Of a stretch of 64,000 nucleotides of DNA, positions 6,578 through 43,760 are shown one piece after another (the stretch's first letter is position 1; every line of letters begins with the position of its first letter). Below the pieces are notes generated by a model that made no database searches, was not told where the DNA came from, and saw only the letters and a list, made by a program, of their open reading frames with translations. Made by a program: the position numbers and the translations under genes. The stretch comes from an uncultured Roseovarius sp. GTDB taxonomy: Bacteria; Pseudomonadota; Alphaproteobacteria; Rhodobacterales; Rhodobacteraceae. The stretch is taken from the NCBI RefSeq assembly GCF_913057115.1, contig NZ_CAJXNN010000005.1, positions 1 through 64,000 on the forward strand, read 5' to 3'.

Positions 6578-6626
6578 TCATTGCAGACCCCAAGAGTCGA
6601 CCCGCGCCGCGAAACGCTCTTCAAGC

Positions 6627-6652: not shown

Positions 6653-6698
6653 AAAACGCACCGCGCGCCCTGTTAACCCTGCGGTATGCGGGAAAGAA

Positions 6699-6734: not shown

Positions 6735-6783
6735 AGAATCAGGTTTTCGTTGTTAACCAATACCTTAGCCCCGATTCGCAGGC

Positions 6784-8472: not shown

Positions 8473-8555
8473 GGCCCCTGTACCGTCTGATGCGGCCTTT
8501 TCATGCGCGCGCCCTTGCCCTACCTTGCGCCGAAATTGTTAAGGGGGGCAAGGCC

Positions 8556-9932: not shown

Positions 9933-9994
9933 TGGCGACGGAAGTCCGGCGCTGTGTCGTATACCCCTGACATGCATTCATTTGAGGACTTTCC

Positions 9995-11366: not shown

Positions 11367-11488
11367 GGCGCGGTTCCTCCATTTGAGGCACCACCCCTAC
11401 CGTCACGCCCTGGATAAAGATTGCACGATCTTGCGGTGAAATGCGCGCCAGCCTTTTGCACAGCACTCGAACAGGCTAAACCATAATC

Positions 11489-12328
11489 ATGCAACAGCGC
11501 GTTCCAGATTTCCTCGCCCAAGCGCCCGATGCCCACCCGATCGCGGGGCTCGATCTGGGCCGTGGGTTCAAGGTGGCGATCTGGGAAAACAGCAGCGGGC
11601 ACATCACCTATGACGGGCCACAGGGCCACACCTTCAGCCTTTATTTGAAGGGCGGGGGCGGCACCAAACGGCTGGATGCCGGGGCCGTTGCGGGCTTTCC
11701 CGGCGCGATCTGCGTGATGCCCGAAGGCCACCGCTCGGAATGGCATATCACCGCGCCCTTCCGCTTCGTGCACCTCTATGCTCCGGATGATCACCTGCGC
11801 GCAGGATTTGCCCGAATGACCCACCGCGACGCCCGCCGCCTTTCGGTGCGGGAAGCCACATTCGTCACCTCCCCCACCCTGGCCGCCCCCTTGCTTCACA
11901 TGGCCCATGCCGCGCAAACCGGCGATATCCTCTTGGCCGATAGCGCGCTGGTTGAGCTTTTGGGACACCTGCCAAATGAAACCGCCCCCCTAAGCGGCGG
12001 CCTTGCCCCGCGCACCCTGCGCCAATGCGACGAATGGATCGCCGCCCACCTTGATCAAACCATCCGGTTGGCCGATCTCGCCCGCGTCGCAGACCTGTCC
12101 GAGTTTCATTTTCACCGGATGTTTCGCCGCACCCGCGGGGTATCCCCGCATAAATGGATCATGTCGCGCCGTGTCGATCACGCCAAGGCGCGGCTTACCG
12201 GCACCGACAGCCTAAGCACAATCGCGCAGGACTGCGGGTTTTCCTGTCAAAGCCATCTGTCGCGGGTGTTCCGTGCAGAAACCGGGCTGACCCCGGGCGC
12301 ATATCGCAAACTTCTACGGCTCGCTTAG
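11489..12328 (+). CDS. AraC family transcriptional regulator
   Basis: 279 residues. The N-terminal about 170 residues form a cupin-like sensory domain. The C-terminal about 100 residues contain two helix-turn-helix motifs of the AraC/XylS type (LADLARVADLSEFHFHRMFRR, then STIAQDCGFSCQSHLSRVFR). The likely target is the divergent EamA transporter gene, giving an efflux pair; this is inferred from position only. The stop overlaps the recN stop by 3 bases in tail-to-tail arrangement. The ribosome site before the ATG is weak. Confidence 0.9.
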   Translation: MQQRVPDFLAQAPDAHPIAGLDLGRGFKVAIWENSSGHITYDGPQGHTFSLYLKGGGGTKRLDAGAVAGFPGAICVMPEGHRSEWHITAPFRFVHLYAPDDHLRAGFARMTHRDARRLSVREATFVTSPTLAAPLLHMAHAAQTGDILLADSALVELLGHLPNETAPLSGGLAPRTLRQCDEWIAAHLDQTIRLADLARVADLSEFHFHRMFRRTRGVSPHKWIMSRRVDHAKARLTGTDSLSTIAQDCGFSCQSHLSRVFRAETGLTPGAYRKLLRLA

Positions 12329-13971: not shown

Positions 13972-14011
13972 CAGTGAAACCCGTCAGGCGGGGTGTCGCC
14001 CCGCCCTGCCC

Positions 14012-14875
14012 TTACAGCCAACGGCCCTGAATCATCTGACGGTACACTTGCCGCAACCAGTTGTCGCCCGCCGCCTCCAGCGTCAGGCCCTGCCCGGTCA
14101 GCATCTTGTAGCTGTCCTCGTACCATTCAGTGCCACGGAAGTTATAACCAAGGATCGCCCCGGCGGTCCGCGCCTCGTCCGTCAGCCCTAGCGACAGGTA
14201 GGCTTCCACCAAACGGTGCAGCGCCTCGGCCGTATGGGTGGTGGTTTGGAAGTCTTCCACAACCACGCGGAACCGGTTGATAGCCGCCGTGAAATGATCG
14301 CGCTTCAGGTAATAGCGACCGATTTCCATTTCCTTGGCCGCCAAATGGTTGAAGGCCAGATCGAATTTCAGGATCGAAGAGCGCGCGTATTCGCTATCAG
14401 GATAGTTCTCGATCACCTGACGCAACGACTGCAAGGCTTGGAAGGTCAGCCCTTGATCGCGGCCAACTTCGTCGATCTGATCATAATAGCTGAGTGCCAG
14501 AAGATACTGAGCATAGGCGGCATCTTCATCCGTAGGATAGAAATCAATGAACCGCTGCGCGGCGGCGCGGCTGTTCTCGTAATCTTTGTCTTGGTGATAG
14601 GAATATGCCTGCATGATCAAGGCACGTTTGGCCCATTCGGAATAGGGGTAAAGCCGCTCTACCTCGCCAAAAACCTGCGCCGCCAGATCAGGATCGTTGC
14701 GGGCCAAATCGAATTCACCGCGCTCGAAGATCTGTTTTGCGGTATAGTTCTCATAGTCGAGCTCACCGCGCTTGATGTCACCGTCCAGTCCGCCGCATGC
14801 GGACACCATCAGGCCCATTGCGACCACAAAAACCAGCTTTGCCTGGGACTTGCGCAACGTCATGCTCGAACTCAC
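14012..14875 (-). CDS. bamD: Outer membrane assembly lipoprotein BamD
   Basis: 287 residues. The signal peptide has lipobox VSAC, so a lipidated Cys near residue 27 follows a hydrophobic h-region. Tetratricopeptide repeats follow (for example YPYSEWAKRALIMQAYSYHQ and YPTDEDAAYAQYLLALSYY), the family pattern of BamD/ComL. It is an essential subunit of the BAM beta-barrel assembly complex, facing the periplasm. It sits between lpxC and recN on the minus strand, the usual Rhodobacterales order, which links outer-membrane biogenesis to the adjacent cell-wall cluster. Confidence 0.95.
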   Translation of the reverse strand: MSSSMTLRKSQAKLVFVVAMGLMVSACGGLDGDIKRGELDYENYTAKQIFERGEFDLARNDPDLAAQVFGEVERLYPYSEWAKRALIMQAYSYHQDKDYENSRAAAQRFIDFYPTDEDAAYAQYLLALSYYDQIDEVGRDQGLTFQALQSLRQVIENYPDSEYARSSILKFDLAFNHLAAKEMEIGRYYLKRDHFTAAINRFRVVVEDFQTTTHTAEALHRLVEAYLSLGLTDEARTAGAILGYNFRGTEWYEDSYKMLTGQGLTLEAAGDNWLRQVYRQMIQGRWL

Positions 14876-14971
14876 CTTCTTCTCGACATGAAAGGGCCAT
14901 GACCCCCAACTTGGAATGGTCCTAGCACATAAATTTCCGGTGCAAAATGACTTTGCGCAATTCTTGCCGGG

Positions 14972-15892
14972 TCAGGCCACTTCGGGAATTTCGCCCCAGT
15001 GCACACCTGCTCCGGGGAGGCGCTGCGCCATCTCGGCGTCGCACTCCACCCATTCGTAATTCGCGGGGTCGGCAAACAGAGCGTGCAACAAGTCATTGGT
15101 CAGGGCATGCCCGGCCCGCATACCTTGGTAGTGGCCAAGAATCGGCGCCCCGGCCAAAGCCAGATCACCTAGCGCATCCAGCATCTTGTGGCGTACGGCC
15201 TCGTCCGCGTGGCGCAAACCACCGGGGCTGAGAACCTCGGCACCATCCACGACCACAGCGTTCTCCAGCGTTCCACCAAGTGCCAAACCGTTGGCACGCA
15301 TGGTATCGACGTCTGCTTTGCGGCAGAATGTGCGGCTATTGCTCAATTCACGCACAAAGCTGCCGTTCGACATGTTCAGGGTCTTCTTTTGAACTCCGAT
15401 CGCTGCATCCTCGAACTCGATGCTGAATTCGATCAAGAGCGTCTCGTGCGGCGTCAAACGTGCCCAGGCCTCGCCGCGGGCCACTGAAACGGGCCGCAGG
15501 ATACGTAGGGCCTTGACCGGGTGGTTCAATGACCGGATGCCGCGTGAAAGAATGCCGCGGACAAAAGCGGCGGAACTGCCATCCAAGATCGGGACCTCGG
15601 GGCCATCCACCTCGATCAAGGCATTGTGGATGCCGCAGCCCATCAATGCCGCCATGATATGTTCAATCGTCGAAAGAGAAACGCCGTCGTCGTTTTCAAG
15701 GCGAGTGCAAAGCGGAGATTGATGCACGCCCTCATACCATGCAGGCAAGTCAGACGCCTTGCCAATAATGTCCACGCGCCGGAAAACGATACCGTGATCA
15801 GCATCCGCAGGGCGAATCGTCAGACGCGCGGGAAGGCCGCTATGCAGGCCGACGCCTTGAAACGATACCGATGACTGAATGCTCGTCTGCAC
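14972..15892 (-). CDS. lpxC: UDP-3-O-acyl-N-acetylglucosamine deacetylase LpxC
   Basis: 306 residues, normal length. The zinc ligands and catalytic residues are visible in STIEHIMAALMGCGI and in RHKMLDALGDLAL (HKxxD). The late ILGHYQGMRAGH segment carries the general-acid histidine. It catalyses the committed step of lipid A synthesis in the cytoplasm. The N-terminus MQTSIQSSVSFQGVGLHSG is typical of the family. It lies 261 bases downstream of ftsZ, with a terminator between them, so it probably has its own promoter. bamD follows. Confidence 0.97.
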   Translation of the reverse strand: MQTSIQSSVSFQGVGLHSGLPARLTIRPADADHGIVFRRVDIIGKASDLPAWYEGVHQSPLCTRLENDDGVSLSTIEHIMAALMGCGIHNALIEVDGPEVPILDGSSAAFVRGILSRGIRSLNHPVKALRILRPVSVARGEAWARLTPHETLLIEFSIEFEDAAIGVQKKTLNMSNGSFVRELSNSRTFCRKADVDTMRANGLALGGTLENAVVVDGAEVLSPGGLRHADEAVRHKMLDALGDLALAGAPILGHYQGMRAGHALTNDLLHALFADPANYEWVECDAEMAQRLPGAGVHWGEIPEVA

Positions 15893-16106
15893 GGATGCCC
15901 TCGAATGCTTGTTTATCCTAACGCGGGGCTCTCCGTTGTGACTTACGGGTCACGGCCCACGCCCTGTTAAGGTTAGCAAAGGGTTTAGATGTCAGGTCAC
16001 TCCGGCTCAACTCAATCTTTGCAACGATATGAAACATGCATCCCTGGCGGGTTGGCGGTTTTCCGCCCAGCCTTTACGCGCAGATGATAAGCCTTTGATT
16101 TACAAT

Positions 16107-16134
16107 AAAAAAGGCCGCCCCTTGGCGGCCTTTT
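16107..16134 (-). terminator. Rho-independent terminator after ftsZ
   Basis: GGCCGCC (16113-16119) and GGCGGCC (16124-16130) form a 7-bp stem with a CCTT loop. It is flanked by A6 and T4, so it can work in both directions. It lies 20 bases after the ftsZ stop and separates ftsZ from lpxC. Confidence 0.9.
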
Positions 16135-16153
16135 ATCGCTAGGTAAGCTCGCG

Positions 16154-17782
16154 TTAGTTCGCTTGCCGACGCAAGAATGCCGGGATTTCGATCTGTTCGT
16201 CTTCCTCGTCCTGCGCCGTTTGTTGCGGCTGCGGAGCCTGCATGGTGGGTTGCTGGCGTGCCGGACGCGGCGCGGATTCGGCTTCGTGACTGTGTCCCGT
16301 CATACGGTTGATCAGCGAGTTAATTCCGAAACGCGAGCGCTCCTGCTGCGCGCCTTCGCCTGTTTGTTCCGGTTGCGTCGCCGGCTGTGCCTGAGCAGGT
16401 CGTTGGCCCGGCGCTTTGCTCACTGCGTGCTGCAGGCGTGCCATGGCTTCGGGCGACGGGGTGCCAGGTGCAGGGGCCTTAGGGGCAACGAAGGCATCGA
16501 GTTGCGCGTCGTTGTCCTCTGCCGCTTCCGCGCGTGCGGCGGGGTCGAATTGCTCAACGCTCGGCGTATATGCCGGAGGCGGCAGGTCGTCTTGCGCCTC
16601 TACCCCGGGGGCCTCTTCAAAGATGTCTTCCATCTGGTCTTCGGCCGCAGCGCGCTGTGCATCCAAGTCATTGAACATGCTGGGCTGTTCCTCGACAGCA
16701 CTGGCCGCCACTTGGGCCGGTGCCTCTTCCTCAACCGGTGCCTCTTCCTGCACTTCGGACGGCTTGAGCGGCTCTGCCAGGCTGCGGCGTGGAACCGGGA
16801 TATCGTGACTCATGTCGCTGGCGTCGATGCCGGTGGCAACAACGCTGACCCGCATGGTGCCCTCCATCGAGGTGTCCAGTGTCGAGCCCACGATGATATT
16901 GGCATCGGCGTCCACTTCTTCGCGAATACGGTTCGCGGCCTCGTCCAATTCGAACAAGGTGAGATCGTGACCGCCGGTGATGTTGATCAGCACGCCTTTG
17001 GCGCCTTTCAGGCTGATCTCGTCCAGCAATGGGTTGGCGATGGCCTTTTCGGCGGCCTGGATCGCACGATCCTCGCCCGCATCCTCGCCGGTGCCCATCA
17101 TGGCCTTGCCCATTTCGTCCATCACGGCGCGAACATCGGCAAAGTCGAGGTTGATCAGGCCCGGACGCACCATCAGGTCCGTCACACCCTTCACACCTTG
17201 GTACAGCACGTCGTCTGCCATGCTGAAGGCTTCGGTGAAGGTGGTCTTTTCATTGGCAAGGCGGAACAGGTTCTGGTTGGGAATGATGATCAGGGTATCG
17301 ACCATCTTCTGCAGCGCCTCAACACCGTCTTCGGCCTGACGCATCCGCTTGCCGCCTTCGAATTGGAACGGCTTGGTCACGACACCCACGGTCAGAACAC
17401 CCAGTTCACGCGCCGCCTGTGCGATGATCGGCGCGGCGCCTGTCCCGGTGCCACCGCCCATACCCGCGGTGATAAAGCACATATGCGCCCCGGCCAGATG
17501 ATCGACGATCTGTTCGATGCTTTCCTCGGCGGCGGCCGCGCCAATGGTCGCCTTCGCCCCCGCGCCCAGACCTTCGGTTACTTTCACGCCCAGTTGCACG
17601 CGATGCTCCGCGTTGCTCTGGGAAAGGGCCTGTGCATCCGTATTCGCCACGACAAAATCAACACCTTCGAGGTTCTTCTCGATCATGTTGTTGACGGCAT
17701 TGCCACCCGCGCCGCCCACACCGAAAACGGTGATCCGGGGCTTGAGTTCGTCATGTCCGGGCATCGTGAGGTTCAATGTCAT
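16154..17782 (-). CDS. ftsZ: Cell division protein FtsZ
   Basis: 542 residues. The tubulin-like GTPase domain occupies about 1-320, with [13 protein letters not shown] at the N-terminus, the signature [11 protein letters not shown] near 110 and the T7 loop region [12 protein letters not shown] long Ala/Pro/Glu/Gln-rich disordered linker (about 325-525) follows, much longer than in E. coli (383 residues in total) but usual in alphaproteobacteria. The C-terminal peptide [12 protein letters not shown] is the partner-binding tail for FtsA and others. It polymerises into the Z-ring. The 188-base gap to ftsA probably holds its own promoter, and a terminator follows the gene. Confidence 0.98.
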
Positions 17783-17970
17783 TGCTCTGTCCGCCTGCTG
17801 TTGTACCTGTTGCGCCTGTTGTCCCGACAGGCCGTAAATTCCGCTTATATTGGTCTATTCTTACCGATCGTTAACCCGCGCGTCACCTAAAAAACACCAT
17901 AAAACCACAAAATATGGCAAGGTTTTTGCGCTAACACGCGGGATTTTGCCGAAATCACCATATCTTGCGG

Positions 17971-19305
17971 CTACCAGTTGTCCTTAAACCATTTAACCGC
18001 CCGCTTCAGGGACCGCGCCGGGTACCTGTCGACGGGAATCTCGAAATCCCACCATTCATCTTGAGGATTCGCCGCAAAAAGGCACATCCCCACCGCACTG
18101 GCAAAGCCCGGACCCGTGGCTGCCTGCGGAAGGCCATGCACCCGCAAGGGCCGCCCAAGCCGCACCTGTTGTCCCAGAATCTTGCTCGCCAATCCGTCGA
18201 GGCCCGGGATCTGGCTCCCGCCACCCGTCAGCACAATCTGCTGGCTCGGCAGATGGTCAAACCCGGCCGCATCCAGCCGCGCCCGCACCTCTTCCAGAAT
18301 TTCCTCGACCCGCGGGCGCATGATGCCGATCAGTTCAGCACGGCTCACGGTGCGCCGGTCATGTTCCCAATCGCCGGTTTCGCCACCGATCTCGATCATT
18401 TCGCGGTCATCCATGCCGGTGGCCACAACACCGCCATAAAAGGTCTTGATCCTCTCGGCGGTAGCTTGCGGCACCTGAAGCCCCATGGAAATGTCACCCG
18501 TCACATGGTCCCCCCCCATGCGCAAGCTGTCGGCATAAATCATGTGTTTCTTCATGAAGATCGAAATACCCGCACTGCCACCGCCAAGGTCGATACAGGC
18601 CGCGCCAAGCTCCTGTTCGTCCTCGACCAAGGCCGAAACTCCGCTGACGTAGGCCGAACTCGCCAAACCGGCCAATTCCAGGTCACAGCGCTTCACGCAA
18701 TGCACCAGATTCTGGATTGCCGCACCGTCGACGGTCAGCATATGCATATCGGTCGAAAGCTCCTGGCCCATCTGCCCGCGCGGATCATTCAGCCCCGTGC
18801 GATGATCCAAGGCGAAATTCACCGGCTGGGCATGCAGCACCTCGCGCCCCTCGCCGTAATCAGGCACCTCGCAAGCGCTCAACACCCGGCTGATGTCCTG
18901 CTCGCTCACGGTATGGCCTTCAAGCTCTACCTGACCTGCCAATCCATAGGATCGCGGGCTCGCCCCCGAAAAACAGACGATCACGTGGTCGACACGGATA
19001 TTGGCCATCTTCTGCGCCGCCTGCACCGCGGTGCGAATGGCGCGCTCTGTCTCGGTCATGGTGTCGATCTCACCAAAGCGCACCCCGCGCGAGCGTGTGG
19101 TCGCCGCCCCGATCACCCGGAACCCGGCCTGCCCTGCCATCGCGCCAATACCATCGGCCTCGCGCAACCGCTCGGTGCCGTCAAAGCGAAGCACCAGACA
19201 GGCGATCTTCGAGGTGCCCACATCCAGAACCGCCACAACACCGCGCTGCATCGCCGCCTTGCGCATATTGCGCATCGCACGTTGGGATTCATAAAGCTCG
19301 ATCAT
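17971..19305 (-). CDS. ftsA: Cell division protein FtsA
   Basis: 444-residue actin-like ATPase. The phosphate-1 motif VLDVGTSKIACLVL is near residue 25. The 1C (SHS2-type) subdomain, the phosphate-2 motif CIDLGGGSAGISIF and the adenosine motif IVLTGGGSQIPGL follow in order. A C-terminal amphipathic helix (SLKRAVKWFKDNW) would tether it to the membrane. It anchors FtsZ filaments at the division site. The ATG lies 4 bases after the ftsQ stop, so the two genes are coupled. Confidence 0.97.
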   Translation of the reverse strand: MIELYESQRAMRNMRKAAMQRGVVAVLDVGTSKIACLVLRFDGTERLREADGIGAMAGQAGFRVIGAATTRSRGVRFGEIDTMTETERAIRTAVQAAQKMANIRVDHVIVCFSGASPRSYGLAGQVELEGHTVSEQDISRVLSACEVPDYGEGREVLHAQPVNFALDHRTGLNDPRGQMGQELSTDMHMLTVDGAAIQNLVHCVKRCDLELAGLASSAYVSGVSALVEDEQELGAACIDLGGGSAGISIFMKKHMIYADSLRMGGDHVTGDISMGLQVPQATAERIKTFYGGVVATGMDDREMIEIGGETGDWEHDRRTVSRAELIGIMRPRVEEILEEVRARLDAAGFDHLPSQQIVLTGGGSQIPGLDGLASKILGQQVRLGRPLRVHGLPQAATGPGFASAVGMCLFAANPQDEWWDFEIPVDRYPARSLKRAVKWFKDNW

Positions 19306-19309
19306 GTTT

Positions 19310-20176
19310 TTATTCTGCCCCTGAGCTTATCTTTGTTATCCGCCACCATTCCTCGGTGGCTGCCTCGTTCATTCTTATGGTGGGCCGCGACGCTAGCCGC
19401 ATGTCCACCGCCACCAGATCACGCGCCAGCATGTCCTGCACGTCGTTCAGCACGATCACCCGCTCCAAAGCGCGCACCGGCTCCGCCTCGGGCAGCATGA
19501 TGCGCTGCCCGCGCTGCATCACCACATCCCAACGCCGCTCGCCCATGCGCACAAGCCCGCGCATCTCGTCAGCCAAGGGCGCCGCCGCGCGCAAAATCTC
19601 CAAGGCTTGCGGAACCGCCCTATCGGCCCCCTCGCCCGCGATCACCGGCAAATCCGCCCGCTCCGAGCGATGCGAAAGGTCCGCCACGCTGACGCCCTCG
19701 GCATCGACCACGGCCAAACCATCGCGCGTGCGCCACACCGCCACCGGCTGACGCTCGATCACTTCGGCCACCAAGACACCGCCCTGCCGCAACCGCACAT
19801 CGGCATCGGCCACCGCTGGCAGTCCAACGATCATCTCGCGCACCTGCTCCAACTCCAGATCAAAGGAGCTTACCGGCAGGTCGAACGGGAAAATCTCGCG
19901 AATATCCTCTTCCACCCCGGTGCTGGCCCCTTCAACGGCCAATAGCTGCACCATGAATTCAGGGCGGGTCTCGATCTCCTGCCGGATCTCGGCCACCTTC
20001 AGCACCAAGGCATCGCGCCGCGCTTCATCGGACAAATAAATCGTCCCGGCGGCGAAACTCAGACAGAAGGGCACGCCGACCCGCAACAGCTTGCGGAAAA
20101 GCGGCGTCAGCATCAGCCGCTCAAAACGATAAGCCCAGCGCGAGGGCGCGGGATCAGGCCGGCTTACCTGTTGCAC
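19310..20176 (-). CDS. ftsQ: Cell division protein FtsQ
   Basis: About 288 residues. A short basic cytoplasmic tail ([14 protein letters not shown]) precedes one transmembrane helix (about 33-52, [18 protein letters not shown]), a POTRA domain ([21 protein letters not shown]) and the FtsQ/DivIB beta domain. It links early and late divisome proteins in the periplasm. An ATG start at 20197 is possible. However, the GTG at 20176 has GGAGG 7 bases upstream inside the end of ddl and gives the usual short N-terminus, so I prefer it (13-base overlap with ddl). Confidence 0.92.
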
Positions 20177-21096
20177 GAGGCATCCTCCACCATCCATGCG
20201 CAGAGCTCCGGGAAGGACATGCCCACCGCCTGCGCCTGCTCGGGCGTCAGCGACGTCGGCGTCATCCCGGGCTGCGTATTGGTCTCCAAAAGCACCAGAC
20301 CATCAAGGCCCAGCGCCTCGTCCCAGCGAAAATCCGTCCGGCTCACGCCGCGACAGCCCAGCACCTCATGCGCCCGTTTGGCATAGTCCATACAGGCGTC
20401 GAAAATCTCTTGCGGGATATCCGCAGGCACCACATGGCGCGACCCGCCCTCTTTGTATTTGGCGTCATAGTCATACCAGCCATCGGTCAGAATATCTGTC
20501 ACGGTCAGCGCCCGGTCACCAACCACCGTCGTGGTCAACTCGCGCCCCGGCGCGAAGGCCTCGACCATCACCACCTCGGGCATCTCATCGGATAGTTGCG
20601 GCGGCCCGTTGGCCTCCTCATTGACAAGGTACACCCCAACCGAAGAGCCCTCGTTATAAGGCTTCACCACGTAAGGCGGCGCCATGACATGCCCCGCGCG
20701 CGCTGTCTCACGCGGCACCAGAACGCTATCAACCACTGGCAATCCCTCGGCCCGGTACGCATCCTTCGTCCGCTCCTTGTCCATGGCCAAGGCCGAGGCC
20801 AGAACCCCGGAATGGGTATAGGGCAAGCCCATCCATTCCAACAAACCCTGCACACAGCCATCTTCACCCCAGCGACCATGCAGGGCGTTGAAAACAACAT
20901 CGGGAGACATATCGGCAAGCCGCACGGCAAGGTCGCGGCCTGCATCGACCTCGACCACTTCGTACCCTGCTTCCCGCAATGCGGCGGCGCATTCACGTCC
21001 TGATGACAGCGACACCTCACGCTCAGCCGAGGGGCCACCCATAATCACCGCCACTGTCGGGGATTTTCTGCTCGAAAGTCCCAACTCGTGCCTCAA
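20164..21096 (-). CDS. ddl: D-alanine--D-alanine ligase
   Basis: 310 residues with an ATP-grasp fold. The N-terminal [17 protein letters not shown] and the central [12 protein letters not shown] (ATP/substrate-binding Ser) are visible. The C-terminal [13 protein letters not shown] provides the metal and D-Ala binding residues. It makes the D-Ala-D-Ala dipeptide for MurF. The start is uncertain: TTG at 21096, or TTG at 21084 with GAGG 6 bases upstream; there is no ATG before the first conserved motif. It is coupled to ftsQ by overlap, as usual in alphaproteobacterial dcw clusters. Confidence 0.95.
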
Positions 21097-21147
21097 TGTC
21101 CAGAACCGTTAACCGGCTCACTTTTATTAAAATCGCCTGCCTTGGCG

Positions 21148-22071
21148 TTACGGAGCCGGTTCGCCGACCCTCATGATCTCCCAGTGTAACTCTATTCCAC
21201 TGTTTTGGAAAACCTTTTTTCTAACCTCTTCGCCCAAACCTTCCAGATCCGCCGCCGTGGCATCCCCGGTATTGATCAGGAAGTTGGAATGCTTCTCGCT
21301 CATCTGCGCGCCACCCCTGCGCGCCCCGCGCATACCGGCGTCATCAATCACCTTCCACGCCTTCAGATCATGGACATCATCGGCCCGGCCCGTGCTGGAA
21401 AACCCCGCCGGGTTGCGAAAGGTGCTGCCGGCAGTGCGGTCCTTGGTGGGCTGTGTCTCGTCCCGCTTTTTAAGCTGCGCCGCCATATGCGCGGCCAAGG
21501 CCTCAGGGTCACCGGGTTCCCCCTCGAACACCGCCTCGACAATCACCCATCCCTCGGGCAGATCGCTCCGACGATAGCGAAAGTTCAACTGCTCAGGGGT
21601 CAGCGTGACAACTTCCCCCTCACGGGTCACCGCCCGCGCTTCCACCAGATGATCCGCCACATAAGACCCATAACAGCCCGCGTTCATTCTCACCGCGCCA
21701 CCAATCGCCCCCGGAATGGTGCGCAGGAACGTCAGGTCCACCCCGGCCTCCGCCGCCTTTTTCGCCACATGCGCATCCAGCGCCGCCGCGCCTGCCGTCA
21801 CCCGGTTGCCCTCAATGGAAATGCCATTGAAGCCACGCCCCATGCGGATCACCACGGCGCGCAAACCGCCATCACGTACAATCAGGTTGCTGCCAACCCC
21901 CATGGGAAAGACCGGCACATCACCGGGCAGCGCCCGCAAAAACGCCGCCAGATCCTCAATATCCGCAGGCTGGAACAACCAATCCGCCGGGCCGCCCACA
22001 CGCAACCACGTCAAATCGGCCAGCAACCGATCTTGCGTCAATTTCCCGCGAACTTCAGGCATCTCAATCAT
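21148..22071 (-). CDS. murB: UDP-N-acetylenolpyruvoylglucosamine reductase MurB
   Basis: 307-residue type-I-like MurB flavoenzyme. FAD-binding motifs include [24 protein letters not shown] and [18 protein letters not shown]. The catalytic region has STFRNPAG and the late [15 protein letters not shown] with the proton-donating serine. It reduces enolpyruvyl-UDP-GlcNAc with NADPH to UDP-MurNAc in the cytoplasm. It is separated from DUF2484 by 99 bases, part of which is a hairpin-type repeat, and followed by ddl. Confidence 0.97.
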
Positions 22072-22117
22072 AGGCGCGGATTAGTCCCCCCGCTGAAAAA
22101 GCGCAAGCGCGCCCGCT

Positions 22118-22147
22118 TCTTCTTGGAAAAAAACTCCCGCCGGAGGC
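22118..22147. repeat. TTCTTyTTG...CCGCCGGAGG intergenic repeat (copy 1)
   Basis: An A-rich stretch followed by a CTCC-GGAG mini-hairpin. It resembles 27641-27668, with the shared order TTCTTyTTGrAAA...CCGCCGGAGG. It lies between DUF2484 and murB. Similarity was judged by eye. Confidence 0.4.
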
Positions 22148-22170
22148 GCCCAATAGCACCACGCGCGCCG

Positions 22171-22419
22171 TCACAATCCCACGCGCGCACGCAGCCACCG
22201 GCCCAGATACACCACCGGCCAGCGCAAAACACTCATTGCCGCAATCAAAAAGGCCAGTCCCCACCACGGGCCATTCTGGTAGATGACAAACACCAAAAGC
22301 GGAATGCCAAGCGCAATCAGCATATAGGCCCGCCGCCAGTGGTTGTCCCGGCTCGGGATCATTCCCAGAATATTGGCCAGAATGATCCACAAACAGGCCA
22401 AGACAACCGATAGGGTCAT
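22171..22419 (-). CDS. DUF2484 family small membrane protein
   Basis: 82 residues with about three hydrophobic segments (4-20, 32-50, 53-72) and a basic tail (GRWLRARVGL). It matches the DUF2484 family, found next to murB/murC in Rhodobacterales. Function unknown; the context suggests a role in envelope biogenesis. The ATG overlaps the stop of the upstream permease gene as ATGA, so translation is coupled to the permease. A longer ORF in this frame is only the shadow of the permease gene. Confidence 0.85.
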   Translation of the reverse strand: MTLSVVLACLWIILANILGMIPSRDNHWRRAYMLIALGIPLLVFVIYQNGPWWGLAFLIAAMSVLRWPVVYLGRWLRARVGL

Positions 22420-23603
22420 GTCCCCACCCCCATACTCAAAACCAAAGCGACAAGTGCTGCCAAAAGCCCCACGACCGGAACAAGCATAGGCACGGTGAAT
22501 GGCGCAGCAGGCGCGCGCCTCTTCATGGCGATGAGCGCCGCGTTGACCAGAACGAAAACCGACAACAAGATCACCGAGGTCACCTCGGCCAATTGCGCCA
22601 CCGGCAACAAAAGCGCCCCGGTCAAGACCCCGACCCCGATCACCAAGGTCGCCAGAACCGGTGTGCCAAAGCGCGGGCTGGCATGGTAAAAGACCGACAG
22701 GCTGCCATGCCGCCGGCCCAAACCGAACAAGACCCGCGCCGCCATCACCACCTGCGCCAAAACCCCGTTCAGCGCGGCGGCCACCGCGATCAGCGATAAA
22801 AACCCGGCGCTCCCACCCCGCGCCTCTGACCAGACCAAAGCCAAGGGCTGCTCGCTTCCCGCCAGCTGCTCCAAGGGTACCGCCCGCACGGCGGCCCAAC
22901 TGACCAAGCCGTAGAGCAGGCTGGTCAATAAAAGCGAAAGCAAAATGGCACGCGGCAATGTGCGCTCGGGGTTGCGCACCTCTTCGGCCATGTTGACGAT
23001 ATCCTCGAACCCGATGAAGGCGAAAAAGGCCAGAACGGCGGCGGCCACCACGCCCGACCAGACAATCTCGGGCGGGGCGCTATAGTCGGCCACAGGCTCC
23101 GCCCCGGCCCCGGCCCAGACGACAAGGCCCAGGCCAAGCACCTCAACGGCGGTGAACACCGCCGCCATGCTCAGGCTTTCCAAGACACCGACAATGGCCA
23201 CCCCCACCAAAAACAGCCCCATGATGACAATCACCCATTGATCGGGCCAGCCGGTGATCGAGGTGAGGTATCCCGCGCCCCCGCGCAAGACCGCCCCCGC
23301 CGACACCGTGCCAGCCGCCACGATCGCCAAGCCGACAACCACGCCCAACAGGCTTGAGTTAAGCCCCTTTTCCACGAAAACCGCCTCGCCCGCCGCTTCC
23401 GGCAGACGGGTGGTAAACTCGGCATAGGACAGCGCCGTTGGCGCTGCGATCAAACCTGCGATCAAGAAGGAAAGCGGCGCCCAAACCCCGGCCTGCGCGG
23501 CCACCGCACCCACCAGCACATAGATGCCCGCCCCCACCATGACGCCCACACCATAGGCGGTCAAAAGGCCAAACCCGATCCGGCGTTTGAGATGTTCGGT
23601 CAT
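22416..23603 (-). CDS. APC family amino acid permease
   Basis: 395 residues with about ten to twelve transmembrane helices. The N-terminal GFGLLTAYGVGVMVGAGIYVLVG is the family helix-1 motif with the substrate-binding GAGIY. FAFIGFEDIVNMAEEVRNPERTLPRAI is the conserved loop of APC transporters, so it probably imports amino acids or amines. The start at 23603 (MTEHLKRRIGFG) is preferred; the longer frame runs into palindromic intergenic DNA. It lies inside the dcw cluster between murC and DUF2484/murB, an unusual place for a permease, and is coupled to DUF2484 by a 4-base overlap. Confidence 0.9.
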   Translation of the reverse strand: MTEHLKRRIGFGLLTAYGVGVMVGAGIYVLVGAVAAQAGVWAPLSFLIAGLIAAPTALSYAEFTTRLPEAAGEAVFVEKGLNSSLLGVVVGLAIVAAGTVSAGAVLRGGAGYLTSITGWPDQWVIVIMGLFLVGVAIVGVLESLSMAAVFTAVEVLGLGLVVWAGAGAEPVADYSAPPEIVWSGVVAAAVLAFFAFIGFEDIVNMAEEVRNPERTLPRAILLSLLLTSLLYGLVSWAAVRAVPLEQLAGSEQPLALVWSEARGGSAGFLSLIAVAAALNGVLAQVVMAARVLFGLGRRHGSLSVFYHASPRFGTPVLATLVIGVGVLTGALLLPVAQLAEVTSVILLSVFVLVNAALIAMKRRAPAAPFTVPMLVPVVGLLAALVALVLSMGVGT

Positions 23604-23634
23604 GCGCGCCCTCTTGCCTCCTTCTGAGACTGGC

Positions 23635-23679
23635 CCGGAAAATTCAAATTTTCCGGCTCGGAATTCTTGCAAAATTCCG
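23635..23679. repeat. Pair of tandem palindromes between murC and the permease gene
   Basis: A 22-base palindrome (23635-23656) has 10-base arms CCGGAAAATT/AATTTTCCGG around CA. A 21-base near-palindrome (23659-23679, arms CGGAATT/AATTCCG) follows after 2 bases. The 10-base-arm, 2-base-centre layout is the same as the first palindrome at 43801-43822. Confidence 0.8.
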
Positions 23680-23697
23680 CCCGCGCGTCACGCATGT

Positions 23698-25098
23698 TTA
23701 GGCCCGGCGCAACCGCTCCGGCAGGCCATTGGCCCATGTGCTGATCGTGCCCGCGCCCAGACAAACAACCATATCCCCCGGTTTCGCCTGCTCGCGCACC
23801 AGCCGTTCCAGATCGTCTTCGTCCTGAATGGCGCGCGCATGGCGGTGGCCCGCGCGGATAAGCCCGGCGACCAAATCATCGCGCGTGGCCCCTTCGATGG
23901 GGTCTTCGCCTGCGGCGTAAACCTCGGCGATGGCCACCACGTCAGCCTCGTTGAAACAGGCACAGAAGTCATCGAAATGGTGATGCAGGCGGGTATACCG
24001 GTGCGGCTGATGCACGGCGATCACCCGCCCCTCACAGGCCTGCCGCGCGGCTTTCAGCACGGCGGCAATCTCGGTCGGGTGGTGGCCGTAATCGTCGATG
24101 ATTGCAACGCCATTCACCTCGCCCACGCGGGTAAAGCGGCGGTTCACCCCGCCGAAACTCGCCAAAGCCTCGCGAATCTCATCGCGCGTCATGCCCAGAT
24201 GCCGCGCCACGGCCACAGCACTCAGCGCATTGCTGACATTGTGATCCCCCGGCATCGGCAACTGGCAACCCTCAATGACCTTGCCCTCGGCCTGAAGCGC
24301 CACGTCGAAATGCGCCACGCCTTTTTCATAGCGCAGGTTGGTGGCGCGAATATCGGCTTGAGTGTTGAAGCCATAGGTCACCACCCGCCGGTCAGTCAGC
24401 TTGCCCACCAAGGCCTGCACATCCGCATCATCGGTGCAGCAGACGGCCAGACCATAGAAAGGAATGTTGCTGACAAAGTCGTAAAAGCCCCGGTGCAGGT
24501 TCTCCTCGGTGCCCCAATGCTCCATATGCTCGGGGTCGATATTGGTGACGATGGCAATCGTGGCGGGCAGGCGGTTGAAGGTGCCGTCGCTTTCGTCGGC
24601 CTCCACCACCATCCATTCGCCCTGCCCCACCCGCGCATTCGAGCCATAGGCGTGGATGATCCCGCCATTGATCACCGTGGGGTCGTATTTGCCATGATCC
24701 AGAAGGGCGGCGACCATGGTGGTCGTCGTGGTCTTGCCATGGGTGCCCGCCACGGCCACGTTGGATTTCAGGCGCATCAACTCGGCCAGCATCTCGGCCC
24801 GGCGCACCACCGGCAGGCCCTTGGTTCGCGCCTCGTCCAACTCCGGGTTGCCCGGTTTGATGGCGCTTGAGATGACGACCACCTCGGCATCTTCAAGGTT
24901 TTCGGCCCGCTGGCCTTGGAAAATATGCGCGCCCATGGCTTCAAGCCGCTGGGTGATCGGCGTTGATTTCAAATCGCTGCCCTGCACCACATAGCCATGG
25001 TTCAGCAAAACCTCGGCGATCCCCGACATGCCGATACCGCCAATGCCCACGAAATGAATGGGGCCCACGTCCCCCGGCAGTTTGGTTGCGGCATTCAT
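23698..25098 (-). CDS. murC: UDP-N-acetylmuramate--L-alanine ligase MurC
   Basis: 466 residues. The N-terminal Rossmann motif [21 protein letters not shown] is typical of MurC. The ATP P-loop is [17 protein letters not shown], followed by the Mur ligase central and C-terminal domains ([14 protein letters not shown]). It adds L-Ala to UDP-MurNAc in the cytoplasm. In-frame ATGs at 25140 and 25131 exist, but [16 protein letters not shown] at 25098 matches the usual N-terminus and has GAGGGGAAG upstream. It is followed by a palindrome-containing gap and a permease rather than directly by DUF2484/murB. Confidence 0.96.
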
Positions 25099-25136
25099 CA
25101 CGACTTCCCCTCTGATCGCCAGATCCTTCATGTCCC

Positions 25137-26231
25137 TCACCCTTTCGCCAGCTCTTCCACCATATCGGCCAAATGTACCGGCGCGTCGGGCAATCCTTGC
25201 CCAAGCGCCGCTTGGGCCATCTGCGTGGCCCCCTGCGGATGGGTCAGAACGCTGGCTATCTGCTCTGAAACCACCTCGACCGCAAGTTTTCTTTCCGGAA
25301 TGACAATTGCCCCGCCCGCCTGTGACAATCCCTTGGCATTGGCGGTCTGATGATCCCCCGCCGCCGCGGCATAGGGGATCAGGATGCTGGGCCGCCCGAT
25401 CACGCTGATATCCGCGATGGAGGAGGCCCCGGCGCGGCTGATCACCAATTGCGCCTCGCTCATCCGGCGCGGCACATCGCGGAAAAACGGCTCCACCTCG
25501 GCGTCGATGCCATGCTCGGCATAAAACTGCGCCACGCGCTGGCCATCCTCATCGCGGGCCTGATGGGCCACGCGAATGTTGCGCCGCAGATCATCTGACA
25601 GGCTGGCAATCGCGCTCGGGATCACATCCGACAGGATGCGCGCCCCCTGACTTCCACCAATCACCAGAACCGACATCGGATAGTCGCCGGGCGGGATATA
25701 GCCCGCGCCCGCCCGCTCCAGAACACTGGCGCGCACCGGGTTGCCCACATGCACCCCCTCAATGCCCGCAGGCAGGTCGGTGGGCCATGTGCCACAAGCC
25801 ACGCGGTCGACCCGCTTGGCAAAAATCTTGTTCACCCGGCCAAGAATACCGTTCTGCTCATGGATCATTCGCGGCCTGCGCAACAGCCACGCCGCGCCAA
25901 GGGCGGGAATCGTCGGATAACCACCAAAACCCACCACCACGTCGGGGGTGTCACGCATCATGCCAAAGGCCGCGCCGATGACACCGCCCAGAATACGAAA
26001 CGGCACTATCGCCTTGGCCAACAGACCGCCGCGCGCGAATGTGGCGCTCGACACTTGGGAAATCTCAACTGAATGCGGGAACCCACCGGTATACCGCGCG
26101 CCGCGCGCATCGGTGGAAAGCTTCACCCTCCAGCCCCGGCGCAACATCACCTCGGCCAGCGATTGGGCTGGAAACATATGCCCGCCAGTGCCCCCGGCGG
26201 CGATCACAAGTAATGGCTGTCTTTCGCTCAC
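25137..26231 (-). CDS. murG: Undecaprenyldiphospho-muramoylpentapeptide beta-N-acetylglucosaminyltransferase MurG
   Basis: 364-residue GT28 glycosyltransferase. The N-terminal [20 protein letters not shown] binds the lipid phosphate. The C-terminal UDP-GlcNAc site has [13 protein letters not shown] and [23 protein letters not shown]. It converts lipid I to lipid II on the inner face of the membrane. It lies 58 bases after ftsW and just before murC, the standard order. Confidence 0.97.
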
Positions 26232-26289
26232 AGCACCACCTCATTGCCTGAATTGCGCCGTCATGGCGCAACCCGGCGCAAATGACCAG

Positions 26290-27456
26290 TCACCGCACCC
26301 GCCCACGCAGGATATCGCCGATCTCGCCTTGGGGCCGCGACCGCGTGAAGGCAAAGAGCATTCCCACCGCAATACCCCCGGCAATCAAAGACGACCCCCC
26401 GTAGCTGACAAAGGGCAAGGTCATGCCCTTGGCGGGCAACAGGCGCACGGCCACGCCCATGTTTATCATCGCCTGCACGGCGAACATCGCCACAAGCCCG
26501 GTCCCGGCCAGCCGAATGAAGGGGTCACGCTCGCGCATCAAACGCGCCAGCGAGCGCACCAGCACGGTGGCATAAAGCAAGATGATACAAAGCACGAGGA
26601 TAAGCCCATATTCCTCGGCCGCCACGGCGATGATGAAGTCAGTATGCGCATCCGGCAGGCTCCACTTCACCTCGCCCTCCCCTACGCCTACACCGAAAAA
26701 CCCGCCCTCGCGGATGGCATTGGTGGCAAAACCCAACTGCGTGTTGGGGTCCACATCTGGGCTCAGAAAGCCATCAATCCGGCGCGCGAAATGTTCGGAA
26801 TTGGAATAGGCCACGCTGCCCGCCGCGATCACGCAAACCGCCATCGCCAGCAAAAGCAAGATCGGCGCACCGGCCACGAAATACATCACGCCCCAGCCGA
26901 AAAGCACCAAACAGGCCTGCCCGAAATCCGGCTGCATGGCCAGAAACGCAACGATCACGATGGCCAGCAGGAAAGACCAGGTCAATCCCGGCGGCCCGTT
27001 GATGTCCTGGCTCGCCGCCATCATCCAAGCGGCCACGACAACGAAACCCGGCTTGAGAAATTCAGATGGTTGCACACTTGCAAACCCAAGGCTGTACCAC
27101 CGCACGGCCCCTTTGCCGAAATCGGTGCCGAAAACCGGCAGAAGGATCAAAGCCACGAAAGCCGCCAGAAACCCGATCACCGCCAGACGACGTACCAAAC
27201 TCGGGCTCATCATCGAGGTCAGGAACATCGCGCTCAAGGCCATTGCGCCAAACAGGGTTTGTCGCTGAACATAATGGAAGGGCGCGAAGCCGTTCTTTTC
27301 GGCCAAGGGCGGGGACGCGGCCAAACCAAGCAAAAGGCCGATACCGAACAGGATCAGCACACATGAGATCGACCACTTGTCGATCGTTCGCCACCACTTG
27401 GGAAGGACCGGCTCCGCATCCCGTACCGGGACCGCGCCATAAACCATCTCTGTCAT
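26290..27456 (-). CDS. ftsW: Peptidoglycan glycosyltransferase FtsW (SEDS family)
   Basis: 388 residues and about ten transmembrane helices. SEDS motifs are present: RWYSLGFASVQPSEFLKPGFV, and near the C-terminus LPFVSYGGSSLIAGGIAVGML. It polymerises lipid II at the septum with its partner PBP3 (FtsI). The start at 27456 (MTEMVYGAVPVRD) is chosen; ATG 27447 is an alternative. The longer frame upstream reads through hairpin-rich noncoding DNA. It is the first dcw gene on this strand within the window and probably begins a transcript from the 306-base gap upstream. Confidence 0.95.
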   Translation of the reverse strand: MTEMVYGAVPVRDAEPVLPKWWRTIDKWSISCVLILFGIGLLLGLAASPPLAEKNGFAPFHYVQRQTLFGAMALSAMFLTSMMSPSLVRRLAVIGFLAAFVALILLPVFGTDFGKGAVRWYSLGFASVQPSEFLKPGFVVVAAWMMAASQDINGPPGLTWSFLLAIVIVAFLAMQPDFGQACLVLFGWGVMYFVAGAPILLLLAMAVCVIAAGSVAYSNSEHFARRIDGFLSPDVDPNTQLGFATNAIREGGFFGVGVGEGEVKWSLPDAHTDFIIAVAAEEYGLILVLCIILLYATVLVRSLARLMRERDPFIRLAGTGLVAMFAVQAMINMGVAVRLLPAKGMTLPFVSYGGSSLIAGGIAVGMLFAFTRSRPQGEIGDILRGRVR

Positions 27457-27562
27457 CTGAACCGCCGAAACTGCCTCGAACACGCCCCGTTTTCGGGGTC
27501 TATCGCAAGAGTGTAGCAGGTCGCACGCGTTGTGGAAAGAGTCTTGCGTCAAAGGGCGTTTG

Positions 27563-27622
27563 GGGGGCGCTGCCCCCGCCGCCCTGCGGGCGACTCCCCC
27601 GGGATATTTATGAACAGAAGAA
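27563..27622 (+). repeat. Composite hairpin repeat, copy 1 (GGATATTT-N5-CAGAAGAA type)
   Basis: It consists of hairpin GGGGGC-gct-GCCCCC (27563-27577), then hairpin CGCCC-tgc-GGGCG, then CTCCCCCGGGATATTT and, five bases later, CAGAAGAA. The inverted copy at 62092-62157 has the same order of parts. It appears to be a dispersed intergenic element. Confidence 0.7.
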
Positions 27623-27640
27623 GACCGGGCCGACCCCTTT

Positions 27641-27668
27641 TTCTTTTTGAAAACAACCCCGCCGGAGG
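27641..27668. repeat. TTCTTyTTG...CCGCCGGAGG intergenic repeat (copy 2)
   Basis: It resembles 22118-22147 in sequence and order. It lies 18 bases after the composite hairpin repeat. Judged by eye only. Confidence 0.4.
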
Positions 27669-27762
27669 TCTCCATCAGCCAAGGGCGCACGGTTCAAACA
27701 AGGGCCTGCCCGTTCAAGTGGTTGCGGGTGCGTGGGCGGGGCCGCCGCCTATAGGCGCAGGA

Positions 27763-28395
27763 TCAACTGCCACCCTGCGGATATGAGATGACCGACAGAT
27801 AACGGATTGGCAGCTTTATCAACTCATCAGGGCCATGCGGCGCGTCGGCGTCGAAAAACAGGCTGTCGCCGGGCCGAAGGTGAAAGCTCTGGTCGCCATG
27901 TCGATAACCGACCTCGCCCTCCAGAATGTAGAGCAATTCGATCCCATCATGTTGGAACGTGGGGAACACATCTGAAGCCTCATTGAGCGTAATCAGGTAA
28001 GGCTCCACCACCACACCGCTGTTATTCGCGCCCAGATGGCCAAGAAGGTTGTACTGATGTCCGGCCCGCGTGCCGGCGCGCTCCATCTCCAGCGCCTCCC
28101 CAGCTTTCACATGAACGGCCTCACGCCGCTCCTCGAAGCGGCGGAAAAAACCTGTGACCGGTACGCTCAGAGCAGCGGAAAGGGTTTGCAACGTGGTCAA
28201 GGATGGCGAGGTAACACCGTTTTCGATCTTCGACAGCATCCCCACCGACAACCCCGTGGCCTCAGCCAAGTCGGCCACTGTCATACCCCGCGCACGGCGC
28301 ACCTCGCGCACTTCCCGCCCGATGGCGGTCTCAAGATTTTTCTCACGGGTCTCGCGAATCTTATGGGGGTCTTGGCGAAGATTTTGATCGGCCAT
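27763..28395 (-). CDS. XRE family transcriptional regulator with C-terminal cupin domain
   Basis: 210 residues. The helix-turn-helix of the Cro/C1 type lies at about 29-85 (REVRRARGMTVADLAEATGLSVGMLSKIENG). A linker and a cupin_2 beta-barrel follow (about 125-205, HDGIELLYILEGEVGYRHGDQ and LRPGDSLFFDADAPHGP). Such proteins are one-component metabolite sensors. It is divergent from a zinc alcohol dehydrogenase. The shared 158-base promoter region carries CGTACG palindromes that are candidate operators for this protein (inference). The start at 28395 is used because the longer frame runs through those palindromes. Confidence 0.92.
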   Translation of the reverse strand: MADQNLRQDPHKIRETREKNLETAIGREVREVRRARGMTVADLAEATGLSVGMLSKIENGVTSPSLTTLQTLSAALSVPVTGFFRRFEERREAVHVKAGEALEMERAGTRAGHQYNLLGHLGANNSGVVVEPYLITLNEASDVFPTFQHDGIELLYILEGEVGYRHGDQSFHLRPGDSLFFDADAPHGPDELIKLPIRYLSVISYPQGGS

Positions 28396-28450
28396 GTTCG
28401 GTCCTTTTCGGCGGCGCTCAACCATGAAAAATCCGGGCCGGAAATGCAAG

Positions 28451-28531
28451 TTTCGTACGAGTCGTACGAAACGTGATGCAGACGGCTCGATTTTCGTACG
28501 AAACTCGGGTCTAACTCGTACGACTCGTACG
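28451..28531 (+). promoter_or_regulatory. Three-palindrome CGTACG module, copy 1 (XRE/alcohol dehydrogenase divergent promoter)
   Basis: Palindrome A centres on 28461 (two CGTACG cores around an AGT). Palindrome B is TTTCGTACGAAA at 28492-28503, centre 28497.5. Palindrome C is CGTACGACTCGTACG at 28517-28531, centre 28524. Centre distances are 36.5 and 26.5 bases, the same as in the inverted copy at 43680-43760. It lies 56 bases upstream of the XRE start and ends 22 bases before the dehydrogenase ATG. Confidence 0.75.
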
Positions 28532-43679: not shown

Positions 43680-43760
43680 CGTACGAGTCGTACGCTCATG
43701 GGGGTGTTTTCGTACGAAAATCGGGAGGCTGGCAAAGCTGTTCGTACGACTCGTACGAAA
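43680..43760 (-). promoter_or_regulatory. Three-palindrome CGTACG module, copy 2 (inverted)
   Basis: CGTACGAGTCGTACG (43680-43694, centre 43687), TTTTCGTACGAAAA (43707-43720, centre 43713.5) and TTCGTACGACTCGTACGAA (43741-43759, centre 43750). Centre distances are 26.5 and 36.5, the mirror image of copy 1 at 28451-28531. Most spacer bases differ between the copies. Confidence 0.75.

What the first reader, a model, noticed from the sequence alone, without database searches (positions are those of the whole stretch)
28451..28531. 81-base module of three CGTACG palindromes with exactly conserved spacing, copy 1
Palindromes A, B and C contain five CGTACG hexamers in 81 bases. Centre distances are 36.5 and 26.5 bases, and an inverted copy at 43680-43760 has the same distances although most of the spacer bases differ. 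Conservation of palindromes and phase but not spacers points to a protein or structure that reads all three sites together. This copy lies in the divergent promoter of an XRE-cupin regulator and an alcohol dehydrogenase, so the regulator is a candidate reader.
Basis: partly seen in the sequence, partly recalled or inferred. Interest (0 to 1): 0.75.

Follow-up and report, generated by a model that had tools for sequence, protein, structure and literature searches.

The report
Dispersed one-way chromosome marker sites
A roughly 84-base DNA signpost, repeated about sixty times around the chromosomes of some marine Roseovarius bacteria, marks at most copies a one-way change in how the two DNA strands are composed, which hints at an undescribed directional process acting on bacterial chromosomes.

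Summary
The window's genome (Roseovarius) holds 58 copies in exact phase. Against congener G301, 44 of 62 copies align at the same place; GTAC cores differ at 1.5% of positions, spacers at 23-35%. Copies avoid divergent promoters and favour convergent 3' ends, so they do not look like operators of the XRE regulator. The architecture, with species-specific letters, is found in 24 of 83 genomes of the genus, own included.

Unexpectedly, the sites are polar. Orientation predicts local GC skew. Residual skew, with gene strand and codon position removed, steps in the same sense at 55 of 59 copies in G301 and 44 of 53 in the own genome. A contiguous 400 kb shows a sawtooth, and one isolated module shows a gradient of tens of kb that reverses the replichore's skew.

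Best reading: a selected multi-box protein-binding site from which a unidirectional, strand-asymmetric process runs outward from the A end. Whether that is DNA synthesis, recombination or a guided translocase is inferred; the reader protein is unknown. It may underlie the unexplained 'GC skew peaks' of Rhodobacterales (PMC9836097, passages).

The parts
28451..28468 (+). Copy 1, element A: outer TTT plus two CGTACG hexamers 9 bp apart
   Evidence: column profile of own-genome copies
28492..28503 (+). Copy 1, element B: TTTCGTACGAAA
28517..28531 (+). Copy 1, element C: two CGTACG hexamers 9 bp apart (the outer AAA of the consensus is not kept in this copy)
43743..43760 (-). Copy 2, element A (module runs on the minus strand), with outer TTT on that strand
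43708..43719 (-). Copy 2, element B
43680..43694 (-). Copy 2, element C
6001..28450 (.). Stretch upstream of copy 1 with negative GC skew on the module's strand (raw -0.05 to -0.21 in 2-kb bins), about -0.01 at 30-34 kb. Genes here run mostly on the minus strand, so part of the raw value is gene direction. Gene-corrected values at copy 1: -0.080 upstream, -0.038 downstream; at copy 2: +0.026 and +0.069 in its own frame
   Evidence: raw 2-kb table; corrected values

Best explanation
The module is one of about sixty dispersed, polar nucleoprotein sites. SHOWN: fixed architecture of NGTACN boxes at offsets 0, 9, 41, (54), 63, 72; conservation of boxes and phase against diverged spacers; mostly orthologous positions, nearly all intergenic and often at 3' ends; at most copies a step in strand composition whose sign follows site orientation. 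INFERRED: a protein or complex binds all boxes in one phase and starts, at or within about 1.5 kb of the site, a one-way process that travels outward from the A end for tens of kb (by eye about 25 kb at one isolated site). That process treats the two strands differently, which over evolutionary time leaves the module strand C/A-rich and its complement G/T-rich. The sign fits a replication fork or strand-displacement synthesis moving away from A. My first guess is recombination- or restart-type DNA synthesis launched at the site; a loaded translocase guided by polar oligomers is second. Probability about 0.95 that this is a selected dispersed site family, 0.9 that it is polar for strand composition, 0.4 for one-way DNA synthesis. 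I lowered the last from 0.45 on re-reading: the only near-significant substitution bias runs against it.
For: 58 copies, 0 in the reversed control. Core 13/880 versus spacers 217/616 and 101/440 changes at 44 shared copies. Context. Raw skew within 2 kb negative on the module strand in 87% of 62 own and 94% of 67 G301 modules, while gene direction is near 50/50. Asymmetric oriented profile: about -0.07 to -0.11 from at least -4.5 kb to +1.5 kb, about -0.015 beyond +2.25 kb. Third-codon-position shift of -0.13 to -0.15 for genes on BOTH strands. Step test: 44/53 and 55/59 negative; control positions mean +0.017, sd 0.049, n=203. Sawtooth in 400 kb, where 11 of 12 modules have a negative step; 0 of 2000 circular shifts come near the fit. 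Isolated '+' module at G301:C1:2559522: residual skew about +0.1 at 60-80 kb away, -0.09 beside it. Natural comparison at G301 +590437: third-position skew of orthologs at 580-585 kb is -0.28 in G301 but -0.005, -0.04 and -0.11 in G350, G356 and G297 (n=5 genes each), which have no recognised module there. G356 steps at both of its own diverged modules. Loci of about 21 other species: raw upstream skew negative in 22 of 24. 4-mer asymmetry spectrum correlates 0.72 with a replichore spectrum, arms split by me at 1.75 Mb.
Against: No protein identified; no binding or replication data. The effect seems to add to replichore skew, which plain extra forks do not predict. Upstream genes are not biased to run with the supposed fork. 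The three-species substitution count shows no strand bias of the needed kind: C>G versus G>C ln ratio -0.04+-0.05, and the only ratio near 2 s.e., C>T over G>A (+0.09+-0.04), would erode the skew (parsimony is biased towards losses of the common base). Steps are not universal: 9 of 53 own and 4 of 59 G301 modules have none or the wrong sign, and 4 and 7 more are weaker than 0.02. Random re-orientation of the 12 modules in the 400-kb stretch reaches the fit in 32 of 2000. CTC/GAG asymmetry is stronger than in the replichore spectrum (0.58 versus 0.15). Skew steps also occur without a recognised module: in G350, where 160 kb held none (profile of 120 kb), and near 50 kb in the G356 stretch. Markers may have diverged there, or modules are not the only cause.
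Confidence: 0.4

Rival explanations
1. Polar loading or address site for a DNA translocase or SMC-type motor, with the strand skew being selected guidance oligomers (KOPS/AIMS-like, recalled) that point away from each module.
For: Some oligomers are far more asymmetric than their base make-up: CTCTCG 120 to 8 upstream in G301 and 84 to 33 in own. Upstream DNA has lower substitution rates than downstream. No current strand-biased substitution of the needed kind was seen.
Against: The asymmetry is spread over very many C-rich words and the synonymous families tabulated and over intergenic DNA; no single sharp motif shared by own and G301 stood out.
Confidence: 0.27
2. Polar replication-fork barrier (Tus/RTP-like); pausing or restart leaves strand-biased change on one side.
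For: Polar and composite; Ter sites are polar, and B. subtilis ter is two imperfect inverted repeats (PMC13220808 passages).
Against: 57 merged sites spread over a 2.9-Mb contig in both orientations, unlike the 9-10 ter sites in part of the chromosome described there. A pause alone does not reverse fork direction, yet the skew sign is reversed at 2559522.
Confidence: 0.13
3. Operators of a regulon, for instance of the XRE-cupin protein.
For: Palindromic boxes; copy 1 lies between divergent XRE and ADH genes; a module sits beside the XRE gene in 6 of 13 module-bearing relatives with the gene.
Against: Divergent regions depleted, convergent enriched; unrelated neighbours; a strand effect over tens of kb is not expected of an operator.
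Confidence: 0.05
4. Mobile repeat (REP/BIME/MITE-like) whose conserved palindromes are needed for transposition.
For: Dispersed, intergenic, some tandem copies 63 or 81-82 bp apart; a half module without A exists (L149).
Against: 44 of 62 copies align at the same place in G301; sequences differ coherently by species; spacers have diverged while cores have not; no match in the phage or plasmid collections at E<=1 nor of the exact pattern in IMG/VR.
Confidence: 0.06
5. The skew step is a by-product: modules sit at borders between old core blocks and younger variable DNA, or at inversion breakpoints.
For: Upstream has higher GC3 and fewer substitutions than downstream; core genes are enriched in skew peaks in Rhodobacterales (PMC9836097 passages).
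Against: Gene order is kept across modules 541490 and 590437 in G356, G350 and G297. The aligned fraction in G301 is lower upstream (0.79) than far downstream (0.94), not higher. The profile is a gradient of tens of kb ending near the module, not two plateaus.
Confidence: 0.09

Closest known systems
parS / Noc-binding sites (ParB/Noc family)
   Same: B reads TTTC-GTAC-GAAA; parS TTTC-ACGT-GAAA and NBS TTTC-CCGG-GAAA share the outer TTTC/GAAA (site sequences from PMC7383237 passages); NBS are dispersed around a chromosome (recalled).
   Different: Rigid multi-box module with conserved phase; polar strand effect. The own genome has one ParB beside a ParA-like gene and one other ParB_N match that is a DNA methylase, so no Noc-like paralogue was found in the 98.7%-complete assembly.
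SlmA-binding sites (GTGAGTACTCAC, recalled; the letters occur in PMC3116907, search listing only)
   Same: Dispersed palindromes with a central GTAC.
   Different: Single palindromes, no phased triple module, no known skew polarity (recalled); SlmA was not searched for here.
Ter sites of Tus (E. coli) and RTP (B. subtilis)
   Same: Polar, composite sites dispersed on a chromosome (PMC13220808 passages).
   Different: 9-10 sites in part of the chromosome there; here about 60, chromosome-wide and in both orientations.
Replication origins (skew switch at oriC; multi-origin archaeal or eukaryotic skew domains, recalled)
   Same: Step in strand composition at a defined site followed by a gradient.
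   Different: One-sided, apparently additive to the replichore, about sixty per chromosome; oriC features such as DnaA boxes were not tested for.
'GC skew peaks' of Rhodobacterales (PMC9836097)
   Same: Local extreme skew with special codon use in the same order of bacteria.
   Different: In the abstract and passages read, that paper reports no marker sequence or polarity; the modules supply a candidate cause.

Membership tests
Transcription-factor operators (regulon) | Sites lie in promoters, enriched in divergent or 5' regions | tested here: not met
   Divergent depleted (OR 0.27, p 0.003 own; OR 0.19, p 8e-5 G301), convergent enriched (OR 4.2 and 5.3)
Transcription-factor operators (regulon) | A regulator binds the sites | not testable with these tools
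   No binding data; XRE ortholog distribution does not follow modules
Mobile repeats (REP/BIME/MITE) | Positions change between close relatives, with empty sites | tested here: inconclusive
   44 of 62 copies aligned at the same place in G301, against mobility; the other 18 were not inspected for clean empty sites
parS/NBS (ParB/Noc) | A chromosomal ParB-family paralogue beyond ParB itself | tested here: not met
   PF02195 search of the own genome (98.7% complete): ParB plus a DNA methylase with a weak ParB_N domain
parS/NBS (ParB/Noc) | Outer TTTC...GAAA half-sites | tested here: inconclusive
   Met by B in the own genome, lost in R. litorisediminis (GCGTACGAAA) and in TGTACA-type modules
Tus/RTP Ter sites | Confined to the terminus region and oriented to trap forks | tested here: not met
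   Sites over all of G301 C1 and C2 in both orientations
Tus/RTP Ter sites | Polar fork arrest | not testable with these tools
   Needs replication assays
Local replication origin | Strand-composition switch at the site | tested here: met
   not at every copy
Local replication origin | Replication starts there | not testable with these tools
   No marker-frequency or nascent-strand data
Structured RNA or terminator | Known RNA family, or covarying stem | tested here: not met
   Rfam: 0 matches at gathering score in the window; arm pairing equals the shuffled-partner null (3.675 versus 3.681)

The most novel reading that the evidence does not exclude
Roseovarius (and perhaps other Rhodobacteraceae) chromosomes carry tens of one-way start sites for DNA synthesis or strand displacement, each reading tens of kb outward from an evolving, protein-defined signpost, on top of normal oriC replication.
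Probability: 0.25. Interest if true: 0.97.

Novelty: categorically new. Interest (0 to 1): 0.86.

Why it matters
No site family that I know of sets local strand asymmetry around a bacterial chromosome. If the polarity is causal, about sixty mapped, oriented sites make an unexplained feature of Rhodobacterales genomes (extreme GC-skew regions with special codon usage, PMC9836097) directly testable. It would also change how skew is used to infer origins, inversions and misassembly in this group. The coherent change of dozens of sites between species is an unusual case of site-protein co-evolution at chromosome scale.

Tried and rejected
Rejected: hairpin/cruciform or RNA reading (no arm covariation; no Rfam family at gathering score). 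ParB/Noc paralogue as reader. Phage or plasmid origin (no match). Gene-direction artefact (corrected for codon position and strand). Inversion breakpoints (order kept across two modules in three congeners). Replichore artefact (the step is a left-right difference).

Led nowhere or weak: gene neighbours of odd or half modules (L147-L153) gave no obvious reader. The k-mer search for one guidance motif gave CTC/GAG-rich words but no clear shared motif; part of this follows gene direction, because GAG is a Glu codon, and CTC/GAG is also strongly skewed 60-80 kb from any recognised module (19 to 124 at 2480-2485 kb). In one search the shift null used a narrower grid than the observed fit, the best decay length was the longest offered (50 kb), and random re-orientation reached the fit in 32 of 2000. 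Spacing is only weakly more even than random (gaps under 10 kb: 4 versus 10.0 expected, 68 of 5000 as low; CV 0.83 versus 0.98, 483 of 5000 as low). The polarised substitution count did not show the expected strand bias. The gap-free alignment is partly by construction, since most members were picked with a fixed-offset GTAC pattern (the two G356 ones by a score at the same offsets). Gene calls came from a home-made codon-usage caller. The 44-of-62 figure counts only modules fully inside one BLAST alignment; some of the other 18 have a module just outside it (e.g. window copy 2 and G301 -647357). Three own modules near contig or stretch ends were dropped from the context count (59 of 62), and 5 own and 3 G301 modules without enough flank from the step test (53 of 58, 59 of 62). 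One search, a first run of the step test, timed out and was repeated.

Full report
1. Observation. Both copies are exactly as described. The spaced pattern of five CGTACG hexamers occurs 58 times in the 3.44-Mb genome (26 forward, 32 reverse; 42 exact), and never in the reversed control. The consensus module is TTT-CGTACGA(C/G)TCGTACG - N26 - CGTACG (B, inside TTTTCGTACGAAA) - N16 - CGTACGA(C/G)TCGTACG-AAA. Outside about 84 bp, column information is near background (that profile's 69 rows also hold reverse-strand readings of modules among the 11 rows with 4 mismatches, which blur it slightly). Between B and C, 126 distinct own and G301 modules carry a G-run (61), a further GTAC box at offset 54 (27), a C-run (7) or none of these (31).

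2. Taxonomy and relatives. The genome-contig scan found the exact pattern in 45 stretches, only in Roseovarius sp. MMSF_3281 (38) and R. litorisediminis (7); records of the own genome may be left out of that scan. In the genome search the CGTACG form is absent (<=3 mismatches) from 294 other genomes of the family, one of them congeneric. With GTAC cores only (<=1 mismatch), 9 of 84 genomes of the genus match, own included. The third, G221, has ten copies of a longer element (about 250 bp) containing the B-54-63-72 part. Letters differ coherently by species: TCGTACGA boxes here, GCGTACGAAATCCACGTACG in R. litorisediminis, TTTGTAC and GGTAC boxes in G356. A TGTACA subfamily coexists in G301.

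3. Selection and stability. In G301, 44 of 62 own modules lie inside an alignment of the same place. GTAC cores changed at 13 of 880 positions, hexamer edges 36 of 440, A-B spacer 217 of 616, B-C spacer 101 of 440, outer flanks 240 of 964. Arm complementarity around B beyond the box is no better than with shuffled partners (3.675 versus 3.681). This is what a protein-binding site looks like, not a hairpin.

4. Context. 58 of 59 own and 66 of 67 G301 modules do not lie inside a gene call. The one exception in the own genome is in a fused IspD-IspF ORF; G301 has one at the matching box pattern, and MMSF_3281 shows that pattern too. Compared with intergenic regions of at least 90 bp without modules in the same stretches, convergent ones are enriched (odds 4.2 and 5.3) and divergent ones depleted (0.27 and 0.19). 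The window's neighbours are an HTH_3/Cupin_2 regulator and a zinc alcohol dehydrogenase for copy 1, and DUF1284 and pirin for copy 2. Copy 1 is therefore an atypical member in lying at a divergent promoter.

5. Polarity. On the module's own strand, raw GC skew within 2 kb is negative in 87% of 62 own and 94% of 67 G301 modules, whereas gene direction is balanced. The oriented raw profile is about -0.07 to -0.11 from at least -4.5 kb up to about +1.5 kb, then about -0.015 from +2.25 kb. At third codon positions the shift is -0.13 to -0.15 for genes on either strand, and -0.04 to -0.08 in intergenic DNA. With codon position and gene strand removed, upstream minus downstream is -0.074+-0.009 (44 of 53 negative) and -0.068+-0.007 (55 of 59). 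The 9 and 4 exceptions, and 4 and 7 further steps weaker than 0.02, are listed. The two genomes share many orthologous modules, so these are not independent tests. Both window copies step in the expected sense, by about 0.04. In the 400-kb contiguous stretch a sawtooth is visible: 11 of its 12 modules have a negative step, 774488 does not, 416423 and 497375 are below 0.02. A one-sided decay model explains 25% of 500-bp variance there, and 0 of 2000 circular shifts exceed 4.1%. At G301:C1:2559522, with no other recognised module in the 80 kb read upstream, skew goes from about +0.1 (60-80 kb away) to -0.09 beside the module.

6. Other species. At G301 +590437, orthologous genes at 580-585 kb have third-position skew -0.28 in G301 but -0.005, -0.04 and -0.11 in G350, G356 and G297 (5 genes each), where no module is recognised. 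At G301 +541490 the step (-0.30 to +0.04) recurs in G356 (-0.28 to -0.03), which has a diverged module at the same place, and in G297 (-0.31 to -0.14, then +0.09), which has a partial one; it is weaker in G350 (-0.19 to -0.12, then -0.01), which has none (2 and 4 genes per bin). G356 steps at both of its modules in a corrected profile, but also near 50 kb without one. Among loci of about 21 other species, raw upstream skew (1.4 kb) is negative in 22 of 24 and downstream in 19 of 24. In G221 it is negative upstream in 9 of 10 and downstream in 10 of 10, after re-orienting L342 by its model match; one upstream flank is only 182 bp, and the downstream genes all run on the minus strand, which by itself makes raw skew negative.

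7. What it most likely is. The site is selected, phased and oriented, and the strand effect is one-sided and decays with distance. The simplest account is a nucleoprotein complex that starts a one-way DNA transaction running out from the A end. The strand left C/A-rich is the one that would be the lagging-type strand of a fork moving that way. Against plain extra replication stand the apparent additivity with the replichore, the lack of gene co-orientation and the substitution count, in which the only near-significant strand bias (C>T over G>A, ln ratio 0.09+-0.04) would erode the skew. I keep DNA synthesis first (0.4) and a guided translocase second (0.27).

8. Literature. PMC9836097 (abstract and passages) reports extreme GC-skew regions in Rhodobacterales that accumulate core genes and special codons and speaks of a distinct evolutionary process; the passages name no marker. 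Nine searches listed no paper on this module; only the listed rows were seen, the library holds open-licence papers only, and sequences printed as images are invisible. So 'not in print' is not claimed beyond that.

9. Limits. Gene calls came from a simple codon-usage caller. G301 data come from stretches around modules plus 400 kb and 80 kb contiguous. 59 of 83 genomes of the genus show no match to the profile; G350 is one of them and still has skew steps, so diverged markers or another cause remain open. The reader protein was not found.

Noticed in passing
window 43802-43896: Four perfect or near-perfect palindromes in a row between the DUF1284 and pirin genes (three with TTCGAA cores, e.g. 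GGAAGGCCTTTCGAAAGGCCTTCC); CTTTCGAAAG was found 4 times in the 634 kb of own sequence examined.
   Followed up: partly
L152:4033-4110 (G000:C17): A module with 2 hexamer mismatches lies inside a fused IspD-IspF ORF (Pfam), with a counterpart inside a gene call in G301; a near-identical box pattern is listed for G339/MMSF_3281.
   Followed up: partly
L149:2629-2668 (G000:C26): Half module (B, 54, 63, 72 boxes, no A) about 17 kb from the parB gene at C26:19232.
   Followed up: no
L327, L330, L332, L334, L336, L338, L340, L342, L344, L346 (G221): About 250-bp repeated element in another genus: GTTAAC boxes, TTGAC, the GTAC-box cluster, a TGTGCAATTTGCACA palindrome followed by a T-rich stretch, and GTTAAC...TGACGTTGCGTC; in all ten loci a minus-strand gene ends 151-260 bp to the right of model position 1.
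   Followed up: partly
L131, L219, L252, L255: Tandem modules 63 or 81-83 bp apart, with one CGTACG type and one TGTACA-like type.
   Followed up: no
G350 L277-L282; G356 L285 near 51 kb of the joined stretch: Skew steps without a recognisable module, so other marker sequences may exist.
   Followed up: partly
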